Source: JAWOFN01 sp046497505 [NCBI: bacterium] (GTDB taxonomy: Bacteria > Blakebacterota > Blakebacteria > Blakebacterales). Taken from it: a stretch of DNA of 5,816 bases. Location of the stretch: assembly GCA_046497505.1 (NCBI GenBank), contig JAWOFN010000002.1, positions 1 to 5,816 on the forward strand. The letters run 5' to 3'. This document shows positions 1 through 5,816 of this stretch, piece after piece; within the stretch, counting starts at the first letter, position 1, and every line of letters begins with the position of its first letter. A model generated the notes under the pieces. That model was not told the DNA's origin and ran no database searches. It worked only from the letters and a program-made list of their open reading frames with translations. The position numbers and the translations under genes are program-made.

Positions 1-1866
1 GTGCTGATCACCACCGAGGGCTTCGAGGACGTGCTCGCCATCGGACGGCAGGACCGCCCCCGGCTCTACGACCTGGAGGTGGAACGCCCCCGCCCCCCGA
101 TCCCCGCGGGCCGCCGGCTGGGCCTGGTCGAACGGGTCGGCCCGGAAGGGGAGCGGGAGCGGGCCGTGGAGGAGGGGAGCGGAGCGCTGGAGGAGCTGGT
201 GGAGCGGCTCCGGGCCCTCGACCCGCCCCCGGAGGCGATCGCGGTCTGCCTGCTCCACAGCTATGCGGAGCCGGCCCACGAGGAGGCGGTGGGCGCGGCG
301 ATGCGGAAGGCCTTCCCTGAGGTCCCCCTCACCCTCTCCAGCCGGCTCATCCCGGTGTTCCGGGAGTACGAGCGGAGCAGCACGGTGGCGGTGAACGCGG
401 CGGTGCAGCCGGTCATGGGACGCTACCTGGAGCGGCTGGGAGCGGGGACCGCCCCGGCCCGCCTGCTCATCACCGCCTCCAGCGGCGGAACCCTGAGCGC
501 CGGACGGGCCGCCGCCGAGCCGGTCCACACCCTCCTCTCGGGTCCCGCCGCCGGGGTGGCGGGAGCCCTGGCCGCCGCACGGCGGGCGGGCTTCGAACGG
601 GTCCTCACCTTCGACATGGGGGGCACGAGCACCGACGTGGCCCTCTGTGACGGTTCCATCCGGCAGACCGCCGAGGGGGTGGTGGGGGGCTATCCGGTCC
701 AGGTGCCCCAGGTCGACCTCCATACGGTGGGTGCCGGCGGGGGCAGCCTGGCCCGGGTGGACCGCGGCGGGGCGCTGGTGGTGGGACCGGAGAGCGCCGG
801 CGCCGACCCCGGACCGCTGGCCTACGGCCGGCGGGAGCCCGGGCCGGAGGGAGAGGGGGTCACGGTCACCGACGCCAACCTGCTCCTGGGACGGCTCCCA
901 TCGGGGGGGCTGCTCGGCGGCGGGATGACCCTGGACGAGGCGGCGGCACACAGGGGTCTGGAGGCGCTGGCCGCCGCGGCCTCCCGCACCCCGGGCGCCG
1001 GGGGGATGGGGCCCGAGGCGGCGGCGGAGGGACTCGTCCGGGTGGCGGTGACGGCCATGGCGGGGGCCCTGCGCACGATCAGCGTGGAACGAGGGAAGGA
1101 CCCCCGGGACTACGTGCTCGCGGCCTTCGGCGGGGCCGGGGCGATGCACGCCGCGGCCCTGGCACGGGAACTGGGCATGGAGCGGGTGCTGGTGCCCCGG
1201 GAGCCCGGTCTCCTCTCCGCGGTGGGGACCCTCACCGCCGGGCTGCGCATCGACAGGGCCCGCACGGTGCTGGGACGCGGGCCCTCCGGGGACCCGGCGG
1301 CCCTCCTGGCGGCCTGGGAGGAGCTCACCGGGGAGGTGAGCGGGGCCCTGGAGGATGCCGGGGCGGATCCCGGGGAGGTGCGGGTGCTGTGGAAGGCGGA
1401 CCTCCGCTACAAGGGGCAGTCGTTCGAACTCACGGTCGACGCCCCGCGCCCGACCGGCGGGGACGCGGAGGAGGTCCGGGAGGTTGTCCGCCGCCGCTTC
1501 GCCGAGGCCCACCGGGAGCGATACGGCTACCGACGGGAGGGGGTCCCGGTGGAGCTGGTGAGCCTGAGGGTGGAGGGGCACGGTCCCGCGGCCGCCGAGC
1601 TGGACGATCTGCTGCCCCTCCCGGAGGGCCCCTGGACCGTGGGCCCGGAGAGCACCCTCCCCGGGGCCCTCTCGGACTTCCCCCGCCGCCCCATGGTCTG
1701 GGAGGGGGAGCGGCATCCCGCACCCCAGGTGCCCCGTTCGGAGCTGGCCCCCGGTGTGCGCTTGCCCGGACCGGTGCTCATCCACGAGTTTTCATCGACC
1801 GTCATCGTCCCCCCCGACGCCGAGGCGGAGGTGGGGGCGTACGGAGATATCGTCCTGTACGTCTGA
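1..1866 (+). CDS. hyuA: HyuA-type subunit, hydantoinase A/oxoprolinase family (5'-partial)
   Basis: This is the ATP-binding subunit of the hydantoinase/5-oxoprolinase/acetone-carboxylase superfamily. Members are cytoplasmic, act with a HyuB partner, and use ATP to open a cyclic amide or activate a carbonyl substrate. The window starts inside the gene. The first residues, (V)LITTEGFEDVLAIGRQ, match a stretch normally about 90 residues into these proteins, so the GTG at base 1 is an internal Val codon and the N-terminal GGTFTD phosphate loop lies outside. Visible conserved blocks (window residue numbers) are FREYERSSTVAVNA (120-133), LSGPAAGVAGA (179-189), the second nucleotide-binding loop TFDMGGTSTDVAL (203-215), HTVGAGGGSLARVD (241-254), TVTDANLLLGRL (288-299), SVERGKDPRDYVLAAFGGAG (361-380) and RYKGQSFEL (469-477). 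The C-terminal beta region ends in a typical STVIVPP block. The usual ADPGPACYG motif reads ADPGPLAYG here, so its Cys is lost. The gene ends in TGA, 18 bases before the PLP-enzyme gene. The family is secure; the substrate (hydantoin, 5-oxoproline or other) is not. Confidence 0.93.
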   Translation: MLITTEGFEDVLAIGRQDRPRLYDLEVERPRPPIPAGRRLGLVERVGPEGERERAVEEGSGALEELVERLRALDPPPEAIAVCLLHSYAEPAHEEAVGAAMRKAFPEVPLTLSSRLIPVFREYERSSTVAVNAAVQPVMGRYLERLGAGTAPARLLITASSGGTLSAGRAAAEPVHTLLSGPAAGVAGALAAARRAGFERVLTFDMGGTSTDVALCDGSIRQTAEGVVGGYPVQVPQVDLHTVGAGGGSLARVDRGGALVVGPESAGADPGPLAYGRREPGPEGEGVTVTDANLLLGRLPSGGLLGGGMTLDEAAAHRGLEALAAAASRTPGAGGMGPEAAAEGLVRVAVTAMAGALRTISVERGKDPRDYVLAAFGGAGAMHAAALARELGMERVLVPREPGLLSAVGTLTAGLRIDRARTVLGRGPSGDPAALLAAWEELTGEVSGALEDAGADPGEVRVLWKADLRYKGQSFELTVDAPRPTGGDAEEVREVVRRRFAEAHRERYGYRREGVPVELVSLRVEGHGPAAAELDDLLPLPEGPWTVGPESTLPGALSDFPRRPMVWEGERHPAPQVPRSELAPGVRLPGPVLIHEFSSTVIVPPDAEAEVGAYGDIVLYV

Positions 1867-1884: not shown

Positions 1885-3087
1885 ATGACCGAGCCCTCGA
1901 GACACGGTCCTTCCACCCGCGCGGTGCACGCCGGCGAGGAGGCCGACCCCGCCACCGGTGCCGCCGCGGTCCCCATCTACGAGACCGCCCCCTTCAGCTT
2001 CGCCACCGCGAAGGAGCTGGAGGAGACCTTCTACGACCAGCGTGAGGGGAAGTACATCTACAGCCGCCTGGGCAACCCGACCGTCAGGGCGCTGGAGAAG
2101 AAGGTGGCCGCCCTGGAGGGGGCGGAGGACGCGGCGGCCTTCGGGTCGGGGATGGCCGCCATCAGTACGGTCATGTCCGCGCTGCTCCGGCCCGGGAGCC
2201 GGCTGGTCTCCTACCGGGACGTCTACGGCGGTACCAGCGGCTTCTTCCAGCGGGTCCTGGAGCCGTGGGGGGTGGAGGTCGCCTGGCTGGACGTGGGGGA
2301 CGAGACCGCCGAGGGCGGCAGGGCCCTGCGGGAGGCGATGGAGAGGGGGGCTGACGTGCTCTACCTGGAGAGCCCCACCAATCCCACCCTGAAGGTGGCG
2401 GACATCGCGGCCGCGGCCCGGATGGGCCGGGAGGCCGGGGCGACGGTGGTGGTGGACAACACCTTCGCCAGCCCCATCCTCCAGCTCCCCCTGGAGATGG
2501 GCGCCCACCTGGCGGTGCACAGCCTCACGAAGTTCCTGGGCGGGCACGGCGACACCACCGGCGGCCTGGCCGCCGGGGATGCCGGGATCATGGAGCGGGT
2601 CCGCACCCACCGGGTGGACCTGGGCGGGGTGATGGACCCCCTGGCCGCCTTCCTGATCATGCGCGGGGTGAAGACCGCCAAGGTGCGGGTCATGCAGGCC
2701 TCGGAGAACGCCCTGGCCGCGGCCAGGTACCTGGAGGACCACCCCCGCGTACGGAAGGTGAACTACCCCGGGCTCGCCTCCAACGAATGGCACGAGACGG
2801 CCCGCAGGCAGATGCGGGCCTTCGGCGGGATGCTCTCCTTCGAGGTGGATGCGGAGATCGAGGGGGTCCGGGCGGTGGCTGACAGCTTCGAACTGGTCCG
2901 GATCATCCCGAGCCTGGGGAGCGTGGAGACTACGCTCCTCTTGCCCGCGGTCTCCTCACACTACAAGTTGAGCAGGGAGGAGCGCGAGGCTATCGGCATC
3001 CCCGACGGGCTCATCCGCCTTTCGGTGGGGATCGAGGAAGTCGAAGACATCATCGAGGACCTCAGTCGAGGTCTGGGCGTCCTGTAG
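1885..3087 (+). CDS. PLP-dependent Cys/Met metabolism enzyme (cystathionine gamma-lyase/synthase family)
   Basis: This is a fold-type I PLP enzyme of the Cys/Met metabolism family, which includes cystathionine gamma-synthase, gamma-lyase, methionine gamma-lyase and O-acylhomoserine sulfhydrylase. At 400 residues it is full length and soluble, with no signal peptide. The cofactor site is intact by family comparison. YSRLGNPT (59-66) supplies the Tyr and Arg that reach the phosphate of the neighbouring subunit. FGSGMAAIS (86-94) is the phosphate loop, and Tyr114 in DVYGGT stacks on PLP. Asp191 in VVDNTFASP pairs with the pyridine nitrogen. Lys216 in HSLTKFLGGHGD is the Schiff-base lysine, and Arg378 in LIRLSVGIE binds the substrate carboxylate. 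Gly116 follows Tyr-Gly where methionine gamma-lyases typically carry a Cys, so a lyase or synthase acting on cystathionine or a related gamma-substituted amino acid is more likely. The exact reaction is not settled. The ATG is supported by AGGAG upstream and the expected N-terminus (STRAVHAGEE). The gene lies between hyuA and a PfkB-fold gene in one apparent operon. Confidence 0.93.
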   Translation: MTEPSRHGPSTRAVHAGEEADPATGAAAVPIYETAPFSFATAKELEETFYDQREGKYIYSRLGNPTVRALEKKVAALEGAEDAAAFGSGMAAISTVMSALLRPGSRLVSYRDVYGGTSGFFQRVLEPWGVEVAWLDVGDETAEGGRALREAMERGADVLYLESPTNPTLKVADIAAAARMGREAGATVVVDNTFASPILQLPLEMGAHLAVHSLTKFLGGHGDTTGGLAAGDAGIMERVRTHRVDLGGVMDPLAAFLIMRGVKTAKVRVMQASENALAAARYLEDHPRVRKVNYPGLASNEWHETARRQMRAFGGMLSFEVDAEIEGVRAVADSFELVRIIPSLGSVETTLLLPAVSSHYKLSREEREAIGIPDGLIRLSVGIEEVEDIIEDLSRGLGVL

Positions 3088-3142: not shown

Positions 3143-4177
3143 ATGAGCGACCGACCGACGCCCGAGTTCTCAGCCGACGAGCCCCTCCAGCCCGCCGACG
3201 TGGTGGGCATGGGCACCATCATGCTCCTCTACGAAGCGCTGGTGCCCCAGGTGGGGGGGAAGCAGAAGCTCCACAGCCAGGGGCTGGAGGTGGTCCCGGG
3301 CGGGGCCGCCGCGGTGGCCCTCACCCAGCTGGCCCGCCTCGGTGTGACGGCCGGATGGCTGGGTGTCATGGGGGACGACGAGGACGGCGACACCCTCATC
3401 AACCACCTCGGTCGCGAGGGGATCGAGACCCGGTGCGTGAAGCGTCTCGGCGGCAAGCGGAGCCCCTTCGCCTGGGTCATGGTCGCGCCGGACGGGAGCC
3501 GCAGCACCCTCTTCTTCCCCAACGTGCTCTCCGACCTCACCCCCGAGCAGGTGAGCGCCACCATGGTGGGGTGCATCGACAACGCGCTCCACTTCCACAC
3601 CGACGTGGCCACCATCCCCCTGCGGACCACCCTCCAGGCCATCGAGGTGGCCCGGGCCGCCGACTGCATGATATTCACCGACCTGGACACCGATCCCGTC
3701 TACCTGGTGGACGAGGTGGGTCTGGGGCGGCACAAGGAACTCGAGGTCATCATGGAGCGGACCGACGTGCTGAAGCTCTGCCGCTCCGCCGCCGCCCGCC
3801 TCACCGGGCAGGAGGACCCCCAGGAGGCCTGCCGGATCATCCACGGGAAGTACGGCAGCCGCTACACCCTCGTGACCGCCGACCGGGACGGGAGCTCCCT
3901 GGCCTACCTGGACCAGGAGTGGTACATCCCGCCGCTGGGGGGACCGGTGGTGGACACCACCGGGGCGGGGGGTGCGTATTTCGGCGGTGTCTCCTACGCC
4001 ATCCTGGCGGGGCAGGAGGGTGCGGACGTGGGCTACTTCGCCAGCGCCTGCGCCGCCGCGGCCTGCAGCCGGGTGGGTTCGCTGGCCCTGGGCTCCATGG
4101 AGGAGATCCAGTCGATCATGAGCGGTGAGGGAGTGACCGAGGAGGCGGACCTCCCGGGCGGGTCCACCGCCGGCTGA
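3143..4177 (+). CDS. PfkB/ribokinase-fold protein, probable pseudokinase
   Basis: The 344-residue protein follows the PfkB (ribokinase-like) plan throughout: DVVGMGTIMLL (19-29), VPGGAAAVALTQLARLG (51-67), GVMGDDEDGD (74-83), TDVLKLCRSAAARLTG (207-222), TLVTADRDGSSLAYL (242-256), VVDTTGAGGAYFGG (269-282) and an Ala-rich C-terminal helix (about 299-309). Active relatives phosphorylate sugars, nucleosides or similar alcohols. Functional positions differ here. The catalytic Asp of the DTxGAGD signature is Gly277 (codon GGT, 3971-3973). The substrate-binding Asp near the N-terminus is Leu29. The two Asn of the GGNxAN-type motif are Ala55 and Val58. NxxE is Cys213 to Ala216. The anion-hole loop DTTGAG is retained, so nucleotide binding may persist. 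I infer a non-catalytic binding or regulatory protein, or a strongly diverged enzyme. The reading frame is intact and the codon style matches the neighbours, so it is not a decayed gene. The C-terminal tail (about 327-344) looks disordered. The start is bounded upstream by an in-frame TGA. Confidence 0.82.
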   Translation: MSDRPTPEFSADEPLQPADVVGMGTIMLLYEALVPQVGGKQKLHSQGLEVVPGGAAAVALTQLARLGVTAGWLGVMGDDEDGDTLINHLGREGIETRCVKRLGGKRSPFAWVMVAPDGSRSTLFFPNVLSDLTPEQVSATMVGCIDNALHFHTDVATIPLRTTLQAIEVARAADCMIFTDLDTDPVYLVDEVGLGRHKELEVIMERTDVLKLCRSAAARLTGQEDPQEACRIIHGKYGSRYTLVTADRDGSSLAYLDQEWYIPPLGGPVVDTTGAGGAYFGGVSYAILAGQEGADVGYFASACAAAACSRVGSLALGSMEEIQSIMSGEGVTEEADLPGGSTAG

Positions 4178-4193
4178 GGGGGCCGGCGCCGTC

Positions 4194-5816
4194 ATGGACC
4201 CCGTCCTCCTCGAGGTCTACAAGCACCGCTACGCCGGCATCGCCGAGGAGATGGGGGCGGTGCTCCAGCGCACGGCCTCTTCTCCCAACATCAAGGAGCG
4301 GCGCGACTACTCCTGCGCGCTGTTCGATGTCCGGGGCCGGACCGTGGCCCAGGGGGACCACATGCCCGTGCACCTGGGCAGCATGCCCAGGTCGGTGGCC
4401 GCCGCCCTCGAGCTCGGCCCCCTGCGCCCCGGCGAGCTGGTCCTGCTGAGCGACCCCTTCGCCGGAGGTACCCACCTCCCCGACCTCACCATGGTGGCGC
4501 CCGTCTTCGCACCGCTCCCCCGCGGGCGAGGTGCTGCCGCCGAGGACCGTGCCGCCGAACCCCTCTTCTACGCGGCCAGCCGTGCGCACCACGCCGACGT
4601 GGGGGGCGGCGCCCCCGGTTCGATGAGCGTGGCCCGTGAGATCTTCCAGGAGGGGCTGCGCATCCCCCCCGTGCGCTTCAGGCGGGCGGGCGAGGCCGAT
4701 CCCGACCCCGGCCTCATGGACCTGCTCCTCGCCAACGTGCGCACCCCCGAGGAGCGGGAGGGGGACCTGCGGGCCCAGGTGGCCGCCCTCGACGTGGGGA
4801 GCCGCCGGCTCGAGGAGATCCTCACCGAGCGGGGCCTGGAGGAGCCGCTCGCCTATGCCGGCCATCTCATGGACTACGCGGAGCGCATGACCCGTGCCCT
4901 CATCGCCGACCTCCCCGACGGGACCTACCGCTTCGAGGATGTCCTCGACGACGACGGCATGGGGTCGGGACCGGCAGCCATCCGGACGGCGGTGACCATC
5001 GAGGGGGACGGGGCGGTGGTCGACTTCACCGGCTCGGCCCCCCAGGTGGAGGGTCCCCTGAACGCGGTGGAGGCCATCACACTCAGTGCGGCGGTCTACG
5101 TCTTCCGCTGCCTGCTCGACCCGGCGGTCCCCCCCAACCACGGCTCTTTCGTCCCCCTGGAGGTGATCGCCCCGCTGGGCTCGGTGGTGAACGCCCGGCC
5201 CCCGGCGGCGGTGGCGGCGGGGAACGTGGAGACCAGCCAGCGCATCACCGACGTGCTCTTCGGCGCCCTGGCGCGGGCGGTCCCCGACCGGGTGCCCGCC
5301 GCGAGCCAGGGCACGATGAACAACCTGAGTATCGGAGGCACCGACCCCCGGACCGGCCGGCCCTTCACCTACTATGAGACCACCGGCGGCGGGATGGGAG
5401 GACGACCGCACGGGCCCGGCCCCTCGGCCATCCACGTCCACATGACCAACACGCGGAACACCCCGGTGGAGGCCCTCGAGCACGCATATCCCTTCCGGGT
5501 GGAGCGGTACGCGATCCGGACCGGTTCGGGGGGGAGCGGTCTGCATCCGGGCGGCGACGGGATCATCCGGCAGATCCGTCTGCTGGCCCCCTCCACGGTG
5601 AGCCTGCTGACCGAGCGCCGGGAGCGGGGCCCGTGGGGGCTGCGGGGGGGCGGAGAGGGCACGCCGGGCCGGAACGTGCGCATCGGGCGGGACGGCTCCG
5701 AGCAGCCCCTGCCCGGCAAGGGGAGCTGGCGGTTCGAGGCGGGCGAGGCGCTCAGGCTGGAGACGCCCGACGCCGCCTCACCCCTCCTCTCCCCATCCCC
5801 CCCCGCCGGGCGTCTC
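4194..5816 (+). CDS. hyuB: HyuB-type subunit, hydantoinase B/oxoprolinase family (3'-partial)
   Basis: This is the second subunit of the hydantoinase/oxoprolinase superfamily, expected to act with HyuA in the cytoplasm in ATP-dependent ring opening or a related reaction. The frame is open for 541 codons from the ATG to the window edge, with no stop seen. Conserved blocks are the N-terminus MDPVLLEVYKHRYAGIAEEM (1-20), FDVRGRTVAQGDHMPVHLGS (44-63), DPFAGGTHLPDLTMVAPVF (87-105), SRAHHADVGG (129-138), NVRTPEEREGDLRAQVAALD (181-200), VPPNHGSFVPLEV (312-324), GNVETSQRITDVLFGAL (343-359), TTGGGMGGRPHGPG (396-409), HMTNTRNTPVEALE (416-429) and TERRERGPWGLRGGGEG (473-489). A family-atypical loop, rich in Pro, Arg and Ala, lies at about 106-123. 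After ETP (523-525) the expected Gly-rich end is not seen. The Shine-Dalgarno is weak: a G-run overlapping the previous stop (4176-4182), about 11 bases from the ATG. The start is supported mainly by the family N-terminus. Family call secure; substrate unknown. Confidence 0.93.
   Translation, partial: MDPVLLEVYKHRYAGIAEEMGAVLQRTASSPNIKERRDYSCALFDVRGRTVAQGDHMPVHLGSMPRSVAAALELGPLRPGELVLLSDPFAGGTHLPDLTMVAPVFAPLPRGRGAAAEDRAAEPLFYAASRAHHADVGGGAPGSMSVAREIFQEGLRIPPVRFRRAGEADPDPGLMDLLLANVRTPEEREGDLRAQVAALDVGSRRLEEILTERGLEEPLAYAGHLMDYAERMTRALIADLPDGTYRFEDVLDDDGMGSGPAAIRTAVTIEGDGAVVDFTGSAPQVEGPLNAVEAITLSAAVYVFRCLLDPAVPPNHGSFVPLEVIAPLGSVVNARPPAAVAAGNVETSQRITDVLFGALARAVPDRVPAASQGTMNNLSIGGTDPRTGRPFTYYETTGGGMGGRPHGPGPSAIHVHMTNTRNTPVEALEHAYPFRVERYAIRTGSGGSGLHPGGDGIIRQIRLLAPSTVSLLTERRERGPWGLRGGGEGTPGRNVRIGRDGSEQPLPGKGSWRFEAGEALRLETPDAASPLLSPSPPAGRL

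What the first reader, a model, noticed from the sequence alone, without database searches (positions are those of the whole stretch)
3143..4177. PfkB-fold protein with all main catalytic and substrate motifs replaced: candidate pseudokinase
Seen: the protein keeps the PfkB order of motifs and the DTTGAG loop, but the position of the catalytic base reads Gly277 (GGT at 3971-3973). Aligned by eye to the family, the N-terminal substrate Asp is Leu29, the GG-motif Asn residues are Ala55 and Val58, and NxxE reads C-R-S-A (213-216). Known: in ribokinase-family enzymes these Asp, Asn and NxxE residues bind the acceptor, position metal/phosphate and deprotonate the hydroxyl. Inference: loss at four separate sites in an intact, well-coded frame suggests selected loss of kinase activity, and a possible new role as a ligand sensor, scaffold or regulator of the adjacent enzymes.
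Basis: partly seen in the sequence, partly recalled or inferred. Interest (0 to 1): 0.66.

Follow-up and report, generated by a model that had tools for sequence, protein, structure and literature searches.

The report
Dead sugar-kinase relative in hydantoinase operon
A protein with the shape of a sugar kinase but without its catalytic residue is kept, in the same place of the same operon, in four related bacterial sequences, so it is probably a real non-catalytic partner protein and not a sequencing error.

Summary
The ORF at 3143-4177 is a PfkB/ribokinase-family protein (Pfam 4.7e-37; AlphaFold model pLDDT 82.8, ribokinase fold Z 37.7) with Gly277 at the catalytic-base position. It is no error or strain mutation: the three relatives found, all from one phylum with 4 held genomes, share 57-61% identity, the order hyuA-PLP enzyme-PfkB*-hyuB, and Gly277 (codons GGT, GGC, GGC, GGA with the window's). 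dN/dS is 0.13-0.41. In 30 of 30 control PfkBs from 30 other genomes the Asp is kept. The substrate Asp and GG-motif Asn are lost too. NxxE is not a clade-specific loss: the nearest Asp-bearing group (7 of 7) lacks it as well. The GG pair and GAG anion hole remain. Best reading: a lineage-specific PfkB pseudokinase, probably a ligand-binding or scaffold partner of the ATP-dependent hydantoinase/oxoprolinase-type enzyme beside it. Loss of ordinary kinase chemistry is well supported by sequence, untested at the bench; the partner role rests on gene order alone. Non-catalytic proteins of this fold are known (plant FLN1/FLN2), so this is a new variant of a known kind.

The parts
3143..4177 (+). pfkB*-like gene, 344 aa, PfkB/ribokinase fold without the catalytic Asp
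   Evidence: ORF; Pfam PF00294 4.7e-37; fold Z 37.7 to ribokinase
3971..3973 (+). codon GGT, Gly277, at the catalytic-base position
   Evidence: alignments; Gly in 4 of 4 orthologues
3953..3970 (+). D271-T-T-G-A-G276, retained anion-hole loop
3227..3229 (+). Leu29, position of the N-terminal substrate Asp (Asn in L001 and L007; absent in L009)
3299..3316 (+). GG motif G53-G54-A-A-A-V58: GG kept, Asn replaced by Val (Leu in the three relatives)
3779..3790 (+). C213-R-S-A216 at NxxE; also lost in the nearest Asp-bearing proteins
3680..3715 (+). D180-L-D-T-D-P-V-Y-L-V-D-E191, acidic stretch of unknown role, largely invariant in the clade
   Evidence: positions 180, 182, 184, 185, 187, 188, 191 invariant in A1
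1..1866 (+). hyuA-type subunit, 5' end apparently cut off by the window edge
   Evidence: Pfam PF01968 7.2e-82; PF05378 matched only from its position 81; the ORF of the relative in L001 is longer, 703 aa
1885..3087 (+). PLP enzyme of the cystathionine gamma-synthase / methionine gamma-lyase family
   Evidence: Pfam PF01053 3e-126; best NCBIfam model PRK08249 2.2e-125, under that model's cut-off
4194..5816 (+). hyuB-type subunit (runs off the window)
   Evidence: Pfam PF02538 2e-198

Best explanation
The gene encodes a pseudokinase of the PfkB/ribokinase fold. An ancestral sugar-kinase-like protein lost its catalytic base (Asp to Gly277) and its acceptor-binding Asp and Asn, kept its fold and anion-hole loop, and was fixed with a PLP enzyme between hyuA and hyuB in one small bacterial lineage. 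Shown: the family, the predicted fold, the missing residues, their presence in all four orthologues, purifying selection, and the conserved gene order. Inferred: it no longer transfers phosphate by the family mechanism; it may still bind a nucleotide or other ligand in the old cleft; and it acts as an accessory or regulatory subunit of the HyuA-HyuB ATP-dependent enzyme (or of the PLP enzyme), coupling ligand or nucleotide state to it.
For: Homology and fold. Gly277 in 4 of 4 orthologues, codons GGT/GGC/GGC/GGA. Asp in 7 of 7 of the nearest Asp-bearing proteins and 30 of 30 control PfkBs. dN/dS 0.13-0.41 over six pairs. Same order hyuA-PLP-PfkB*-hyuB in the window and the three relatives; the fourth genome of the phylum lacks PfkB* at 1e-25, HyuB at 0.001 and the PLP enzyme at 1e-95. 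In the 27 HyuB loci read from outside the phylum neither gene was found within the flanks of up to about 1.5 kb. Precedents, passages read: Arabidopsis FLN1/FLN2, no kinase activity detected (PMC5405513); Apc-epsilon, a 34 kDa extra subunit needed by acetophenone carboxylase, a HyuAB relative (PMC5214803); Asp255 named as catalytic base in ribokinase (PMC10339645).
Against: No biochemical data. The partner role rests on gene order in four sequences of one lineage. Gly247 of the T-x-G stretch, Gly in 30 of 30 controls and in the three relatives, is Asp in the window, so nucleotide binding is uncertain here. Synonymous distances are 0.86-1.75, so dN/dS is rough. Pseudoenzymes can retain function through migrated residues (start of the abstract of PMC10211241, search listing).
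Confidence: 0.6

Rival explanations
1. An active kinase or other enzyme with a relocated or different catalytic group: conserved acidic residues (D154, D180, D182, D184) or a substrate-assisted route replace Asp277, with a new acceptor substrate tied to the PLP/Hyu pathway.
For: Purifying selection and many clade-invariant residues, including D154, D180, D182, D184; D180 and D182 lie in the columns where many active kinases have N/D-P-A/N motifs; D184 is specific to the clade against the nearest group; GAG anion hole kept.
Against: D180 and D182 are present also in the Asp277-bearing nearest proteins (7 of 7 each), and D154 stands where they have Glu, so these are not obvious replacements; loss of the substrate Asp and Asn together with the base fits loss of function better; residues 188-194 of the model have pLDDT under 50.
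Confidence: 0.2
2. A decaying leftover: a former kinase gene without function, carried because it lies inside an operon that is under selection.
For: For pairs with the window its dN/dS is the highest of the genes compared (0.33-0.41 against 0.22-0.29 for the PLP enzyme, 0.16-0.17 for HyuB and 0.23 for HyuA); L009 lacks 14 residues with the first strand.
Against: dN/dS is still well under 1 and the frames are intact in 4 of 4 after divergence to about 60% identity.
Confidence: 0.12
3. Sequencing or assembly error turning GAT into GGT.
For: A one-base change would suffice in the window taken alone.
Against: Gly in 4 of 4 separate sequences with different third bases, including GGA.
Confidence: 0.01

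Closest known systems
PfkB/ribokinase family (PF00294), ribokinase in particular
   Same: Whole fold, order of motifs, GG pair, GAG anion hole
   Different: No catalytic Asp, no N-terminal substrate Asp, no GG-motif Asn, no NxxE
PfkB proteins L010-L014, L060, L061 (some fused to a SIS domain)
   Same: L010-L014 are the neighbours of the clade in two trees (support 93/89 and 86/78, not strong); all 7 share the missing NxxE, D180, D182, P185 and K211 with the clade
   Different: All 7 keep Asp277, the N-terminal Asp and the GG-motif Asn; 5 of the 7 lie in frames of 542-587 aa, of which L061 was scanned and carries a KpsF-type sugar-phosphate isomerase domain
Plant FLN1/FLN2 (fructokinase-like proteins)
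   Same: PfkB fold for which no kinase activity was detected (PMC5405513, passages); FLN chains are among the PDB hits (8qma)
   Different: Plant plastid transcription complex (PMC3409070, abstract start and passages); FLN hits score lower than many ribokinases; I did not compare their active-site residues
Acetophenone carboxylase subunit Apc-epsilon
   Same: A 34 kDa extra subunit essential to an enzyme related to HyuAB (PMC5214803, passages)
   Different: Functional analogy only; no Apc-epsilon sequence was at hand, so no homology was tested; the same paper describes hydantoinase clusters as hydAB alone

Membership tests
PfkB/ribokinase fold family | Significant match to family profile | tested here: met
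   PF00294 E 4.7e-37, 128.4 bits, cut-off 25.8
PfkB/ribokinase fold family | Ribokinase fold over the whole chain | tested here: met
   Model pLDDT 82.8, pTM 0.84; Z 37.7, rmsd 1.8, 299 residues aligned to 9zpu_A
Active PfkB kinase | Catalytic-base Asp in G-A-G-D | tested here: not met
   Gly277 in 4 of 4; Asp in 30 of 30 controls
Active PfkB kinase | N-terminal acceptor Asp | tested here: not met
   L, N, N, absent in the four orthologues; Asp in 29 of 30 controls
Active PfkB kinase | Asn of the GG motif | tested here: not met
   V, L, L, L; Asn in 28 of 30 controls
Active PfkB kinase | NxxE | tested here: not met
   CRSA in the window; the nearest Asp-bearing proteins lack it too, 7 of 7, so not diagnostic
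Active PfkB kinase | GAG anion hole | tested here: met
   G274-A275-G276 invariant in the four orthologues
Active PfkB kinase | Measured phosphotransfer | not testable with these tools
   needs purified protein
Plant FLN-type PfkB protein | Closest relation to FLN1/FLN2 | tested here: inconclusive
   FLN chains score below many ribokinases (8qma_I E 6.2e-7 against 7.7e-16 for the best hit); no tree with FLN was built
HyuA-HyuB hydantoinase/oxoprolinase operon | hyuA and hyuB families present | tested here: met
   PF01968 and PF02538
HyuA-HyuB hydantoinase/oxoprolinase operon | hydA next to hydB without other genes between | tested here: not met
   PLP and PfkB* genes lie between them in the window, L001, L224 and L226
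Apc-epsilon subunit | Sequence homology | not tested
   no Apc-epsilon sequence in hand

The most novel reading that the evidence does not exclude
Probability: 0.25. Interest if true: 0.65.

Novelty: new variant of a known kind. Interest (0 to 1): 0.42.

Why it matters
Non-catalytic members of the ribokinase fold seem little described in the library I could search: 'pseudokinase' with 'PfkB' gave 5 papers, none with either word in title or abstract, and 'carbohydrate kinase', 'ribokinase' and 'pseudoenzyme' together gave none; subscription papers are mostly not held there. A clade with a clean Asp-to-Gly change in a fixed operon gives a compact test system: four genes, one lineage, a clear question (does it bind ATP, HyuAB or the PLP enzyme?). 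It also warns annotators that a strong PfkB profile score does not show a kinase.

Tried and rejected
Rejected: sequencing error (Gly in 4 of 4). Rejected: NxxE as evidence of clade-specific decay (the nearest Asp-bearing proteins lack it too). Considered and not pressed: an EF-hand-like reading of D180-x-D-x-D...E191; D180 and D182 are shared with Asp277-bearing proteins and residues 188-194 of the model have pLDDT under 50. The first structure job, with two sequences, failed (pLDDT 35.2); the second, with 14, succeeded. Two viral-contig scans gave no confirmed relative; the phage record collection was not searched; PHROGs gave one family of unknown function (8.9e-15). Plasmid records gave only distant PfkBs: 315 records, all under 60% identity, 30.4% the highest of the 10 rows listed. 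A search of 64 further genomes with the L007 protein gave nothing at 1e-28, without a positive control; a search of 84 with the four-row alignment gave two proteins at 1e-35, both with Asp at the catalytic place. Rfam at gathering scores found nothing in the window. The Asp-bearing viral-contig PfkBs in the structure alignment were chosen by a pattern that demands Asp in part, so they are not used as a control. Rows dropped: L017 (stops inside) was left out before the alignment; L006 was left out of the trees; L003, L004 and L005 also; L002 and L008 are copies of the L001 locus.

Full report
What is there. The window holds four genes on the + strand: a hyuA-type gene (1-1866, its 5' end apparently cut off), a PLP enzyme of the cystathionine gamma-synthase/methionine gamma-lyase family (1885-3087), the gene in question (3143-4177) and a hyuB-type gene (4194 to the window end). 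The third gene matches Pfam PfkB at 4.7e-37, 128.4 bits against a cut-off of 25.8, but none of the 18 NCBIfam models that match reaches its cut-off, so no model gives its substrate class.

The residues. In HMMER alignments with four solved kinase sequences Gly277 lies opposite the catalytic Asp. A multiple alignment with 23 further hits of the genome searches shows Asp there in 20, Gly in 2 (L015, L019) and Cys in 1 (L006). The same alignment puts Leu29 at the N-terminal Asp, Val58 at the GG-motif Asn and Cys213/Ala216 at NxxE. These are the highest-scoring family members and so lean canonical.

Relatives. One relative came from the genome-contig scan (L001, a MAG titled 'bacterium isolate Meg19_1012_Bin_119'); that scan uses exact peptide patterns and misses remote kin. 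Its phylum has 4 held genomes; 3 of 4 carry the protein. A search of 386 genomes around it found 18 with matches at 1e-20; the three of that phylum have 60-62% identity, the others at most 32%. The genome of the window is not held, so its place in that phylum is an inference from identity and shared operon. All four have Gly at 277, with codons GGT, GGC, GGC and GGA; the N-terminal Asp position is Leu, Asn, Asn, absent; the GG Asn position Val, Leu, Leu, Leu. Pairwise dN/dS (Nei-Gojobori) is 0.13-0.41 for six pairs, against 0.12-0.29 for the PLP enzyme (six pairs), 0.07-0.17 for HyuB (three pairs) and 0.23 for HyuA (one pair). The synonymous distances (0.86-1.75 for the PfkB pairs) make these rough, but they argue against free drift.

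Nearest Asp-bearing proteins. In two trees the clade is placed beside L010-L014, with support 93/89 and 86/78, which is not strong; in the second the nearest rows by path outside the clade are L023 and L010, tied. L010-L014 and the similar L060 and L061 (not in the trees) keep Asp277, the N-terminal Asp and the GG Asn in 7 of 7, but have no NxxE either. The branch that leads to the clade is long (1.5-1.6 changes per column), as expected for a change of function. Two other proteins, L015 and L019, carry Gly at the same position; the Gly state needs two changes on the tree and a single Gly clade is rejected (p-AU 0.0009), though that group was named after the tree was seen.

Structure. With 14 sequences AlphaFold gives pLDDT 82.8 and pTM 0.84. 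The best solved matches are ribokinases: 9zpu_A, Z 37.7, rmsd 1.8 over 299 residues; Foldseek agrees. The matches span residues 16-329.

Operon. In the window and in the three relatives the order is hyuA, PLP enzyme, PfkB*, hyuB. In L001 the block is followed by genes that I recognise as carA and carB and preceded by a galactokinase-like gene, and contig L233 of a second genome looks the same; these names are my reading of the ORFs, not a database result. The fourth genome of the phylum lacks PfkB* (1e-25), HyuB (0.001) and the PLP enzyme (1e-95). HyuB relatives occur in 77 of 386 genomes at 1e-100. I read the 30 loci returned: 3 are the clade's own; of the 27 others none shows the PLP enzyme or PfkB* by tblastn at 1e-5 in flanks of up to about 1.5 kb, and 19 show a HyuA match on the upstream side. 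The PLP enzyme is also distinct: 67-72% identity within the clade, 43-47% in the 6 other genomes that passed 1e-95 out of 290 searched, none of the 6 with hyu or pfkB* matches in its flanks. The simplest reading is that a pair of genes was placed between hyuA and hyuB in one lineage and stayed there (inference).

What it most likely does. Loss of the base, of the acceptor Asp and of the acceptor Asn, kept under selection, argues that phosphotransfer by the family mechanism is gone (inference; about 0.8). The GAG anion hole is kept, so a nucleotide or phosphate ligand could still bind; yet Gly247 of the T-x-G stretch, Gly in 30 of 30 controls and in the three relatives, is Asp in the window, so binding is not certain. 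Gene order suggests work with HyuA-HyuB or the PLP enzyme. There is a functional precedent: acetophenone carboxylase, a HyuAB relative, needs a loosely attached 34 kDa subunit, Apc-epsilon, while hydantoinase clusters are described as hydAB alone (PMC5214803, passages read). I had no Apc-epsilon sequence, so this is analogy, not homology. For the fold, plant FLN1 and FLN2 have no detected kinase activity (PMC5405513, passages read) and belong to the plastid RNA polymerase complex (PMC3409070, start of abstract and passages).

Against this reading. No biochemistry exists; I found only four sequences, apparently all from one lineage; L009 lacks 14 residues with the first strand, which may be an assembly fault or a further sign of relaxed need for the substrate site; window pairs have the highest dN/dS of the operon genes compared. 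An enzyme with a relocated catalytic group cannot be excluded, but the conserved acidic residues D180 and D182 are shared with Asp277-bearing proteins and so are not obvious replacements; D184 is specific to the clade against those proteins and stays open.

Verdict. Observation confirmed; interpretation partly supported; a new variant (bacterial, operon-fixed) of a known kind (PfkB-fold protein without kinase activity).

Noticed in passing
L015:1438-2424 and L019:1459-2442 (- strand): Two PfkB proteins from other genomes also read DTTGAGG at the catalytic position while keeping the N-terminal Asp and GG-motif Asn; their neighbour L028 keeps the catalytic Asp. The tree needs a second, separate change between Asp and Gly.
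   Followed up: partly
L009:1486-2496 (- strand): This orthologue lacks 14 residues covering the first beta strand, in frame; assembly fault or real deletion not decided.
   Followed up: partly
L061:856-2490 (- strand); long frames also at L010, L011, L012, L060: PfkB domain fused to a KpsF/GutQ-type sugar-phosphate isomerase domain (shown for L061 by NCBIfam; L010 and L060 read similarly by eye), all with Asp at the catalytic position.
   Followed up: partly
window 3680-3715: DLDTDPVYLVDE: an acidic stretch with EF-hand-like spacing; D180, D182, D184 and E191 are identical in all four orthologues, without structural support in the model.
   Followed up: partly
L001:965-2260, 8365-9612, 9563-12790: Flanking genes of the operon look like a galactokinase and carA/carB (my reading of the ORFs); similar flanks appear in L233.
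   Followed up: partly
window 3170-4195, - strand: A 341-codon open frame lies antisense to nearly the whole pfkB* gene, as other long antisense frames do in this window; with GC3 of 0.94 such frames are likely by composition.
   Followed up: no
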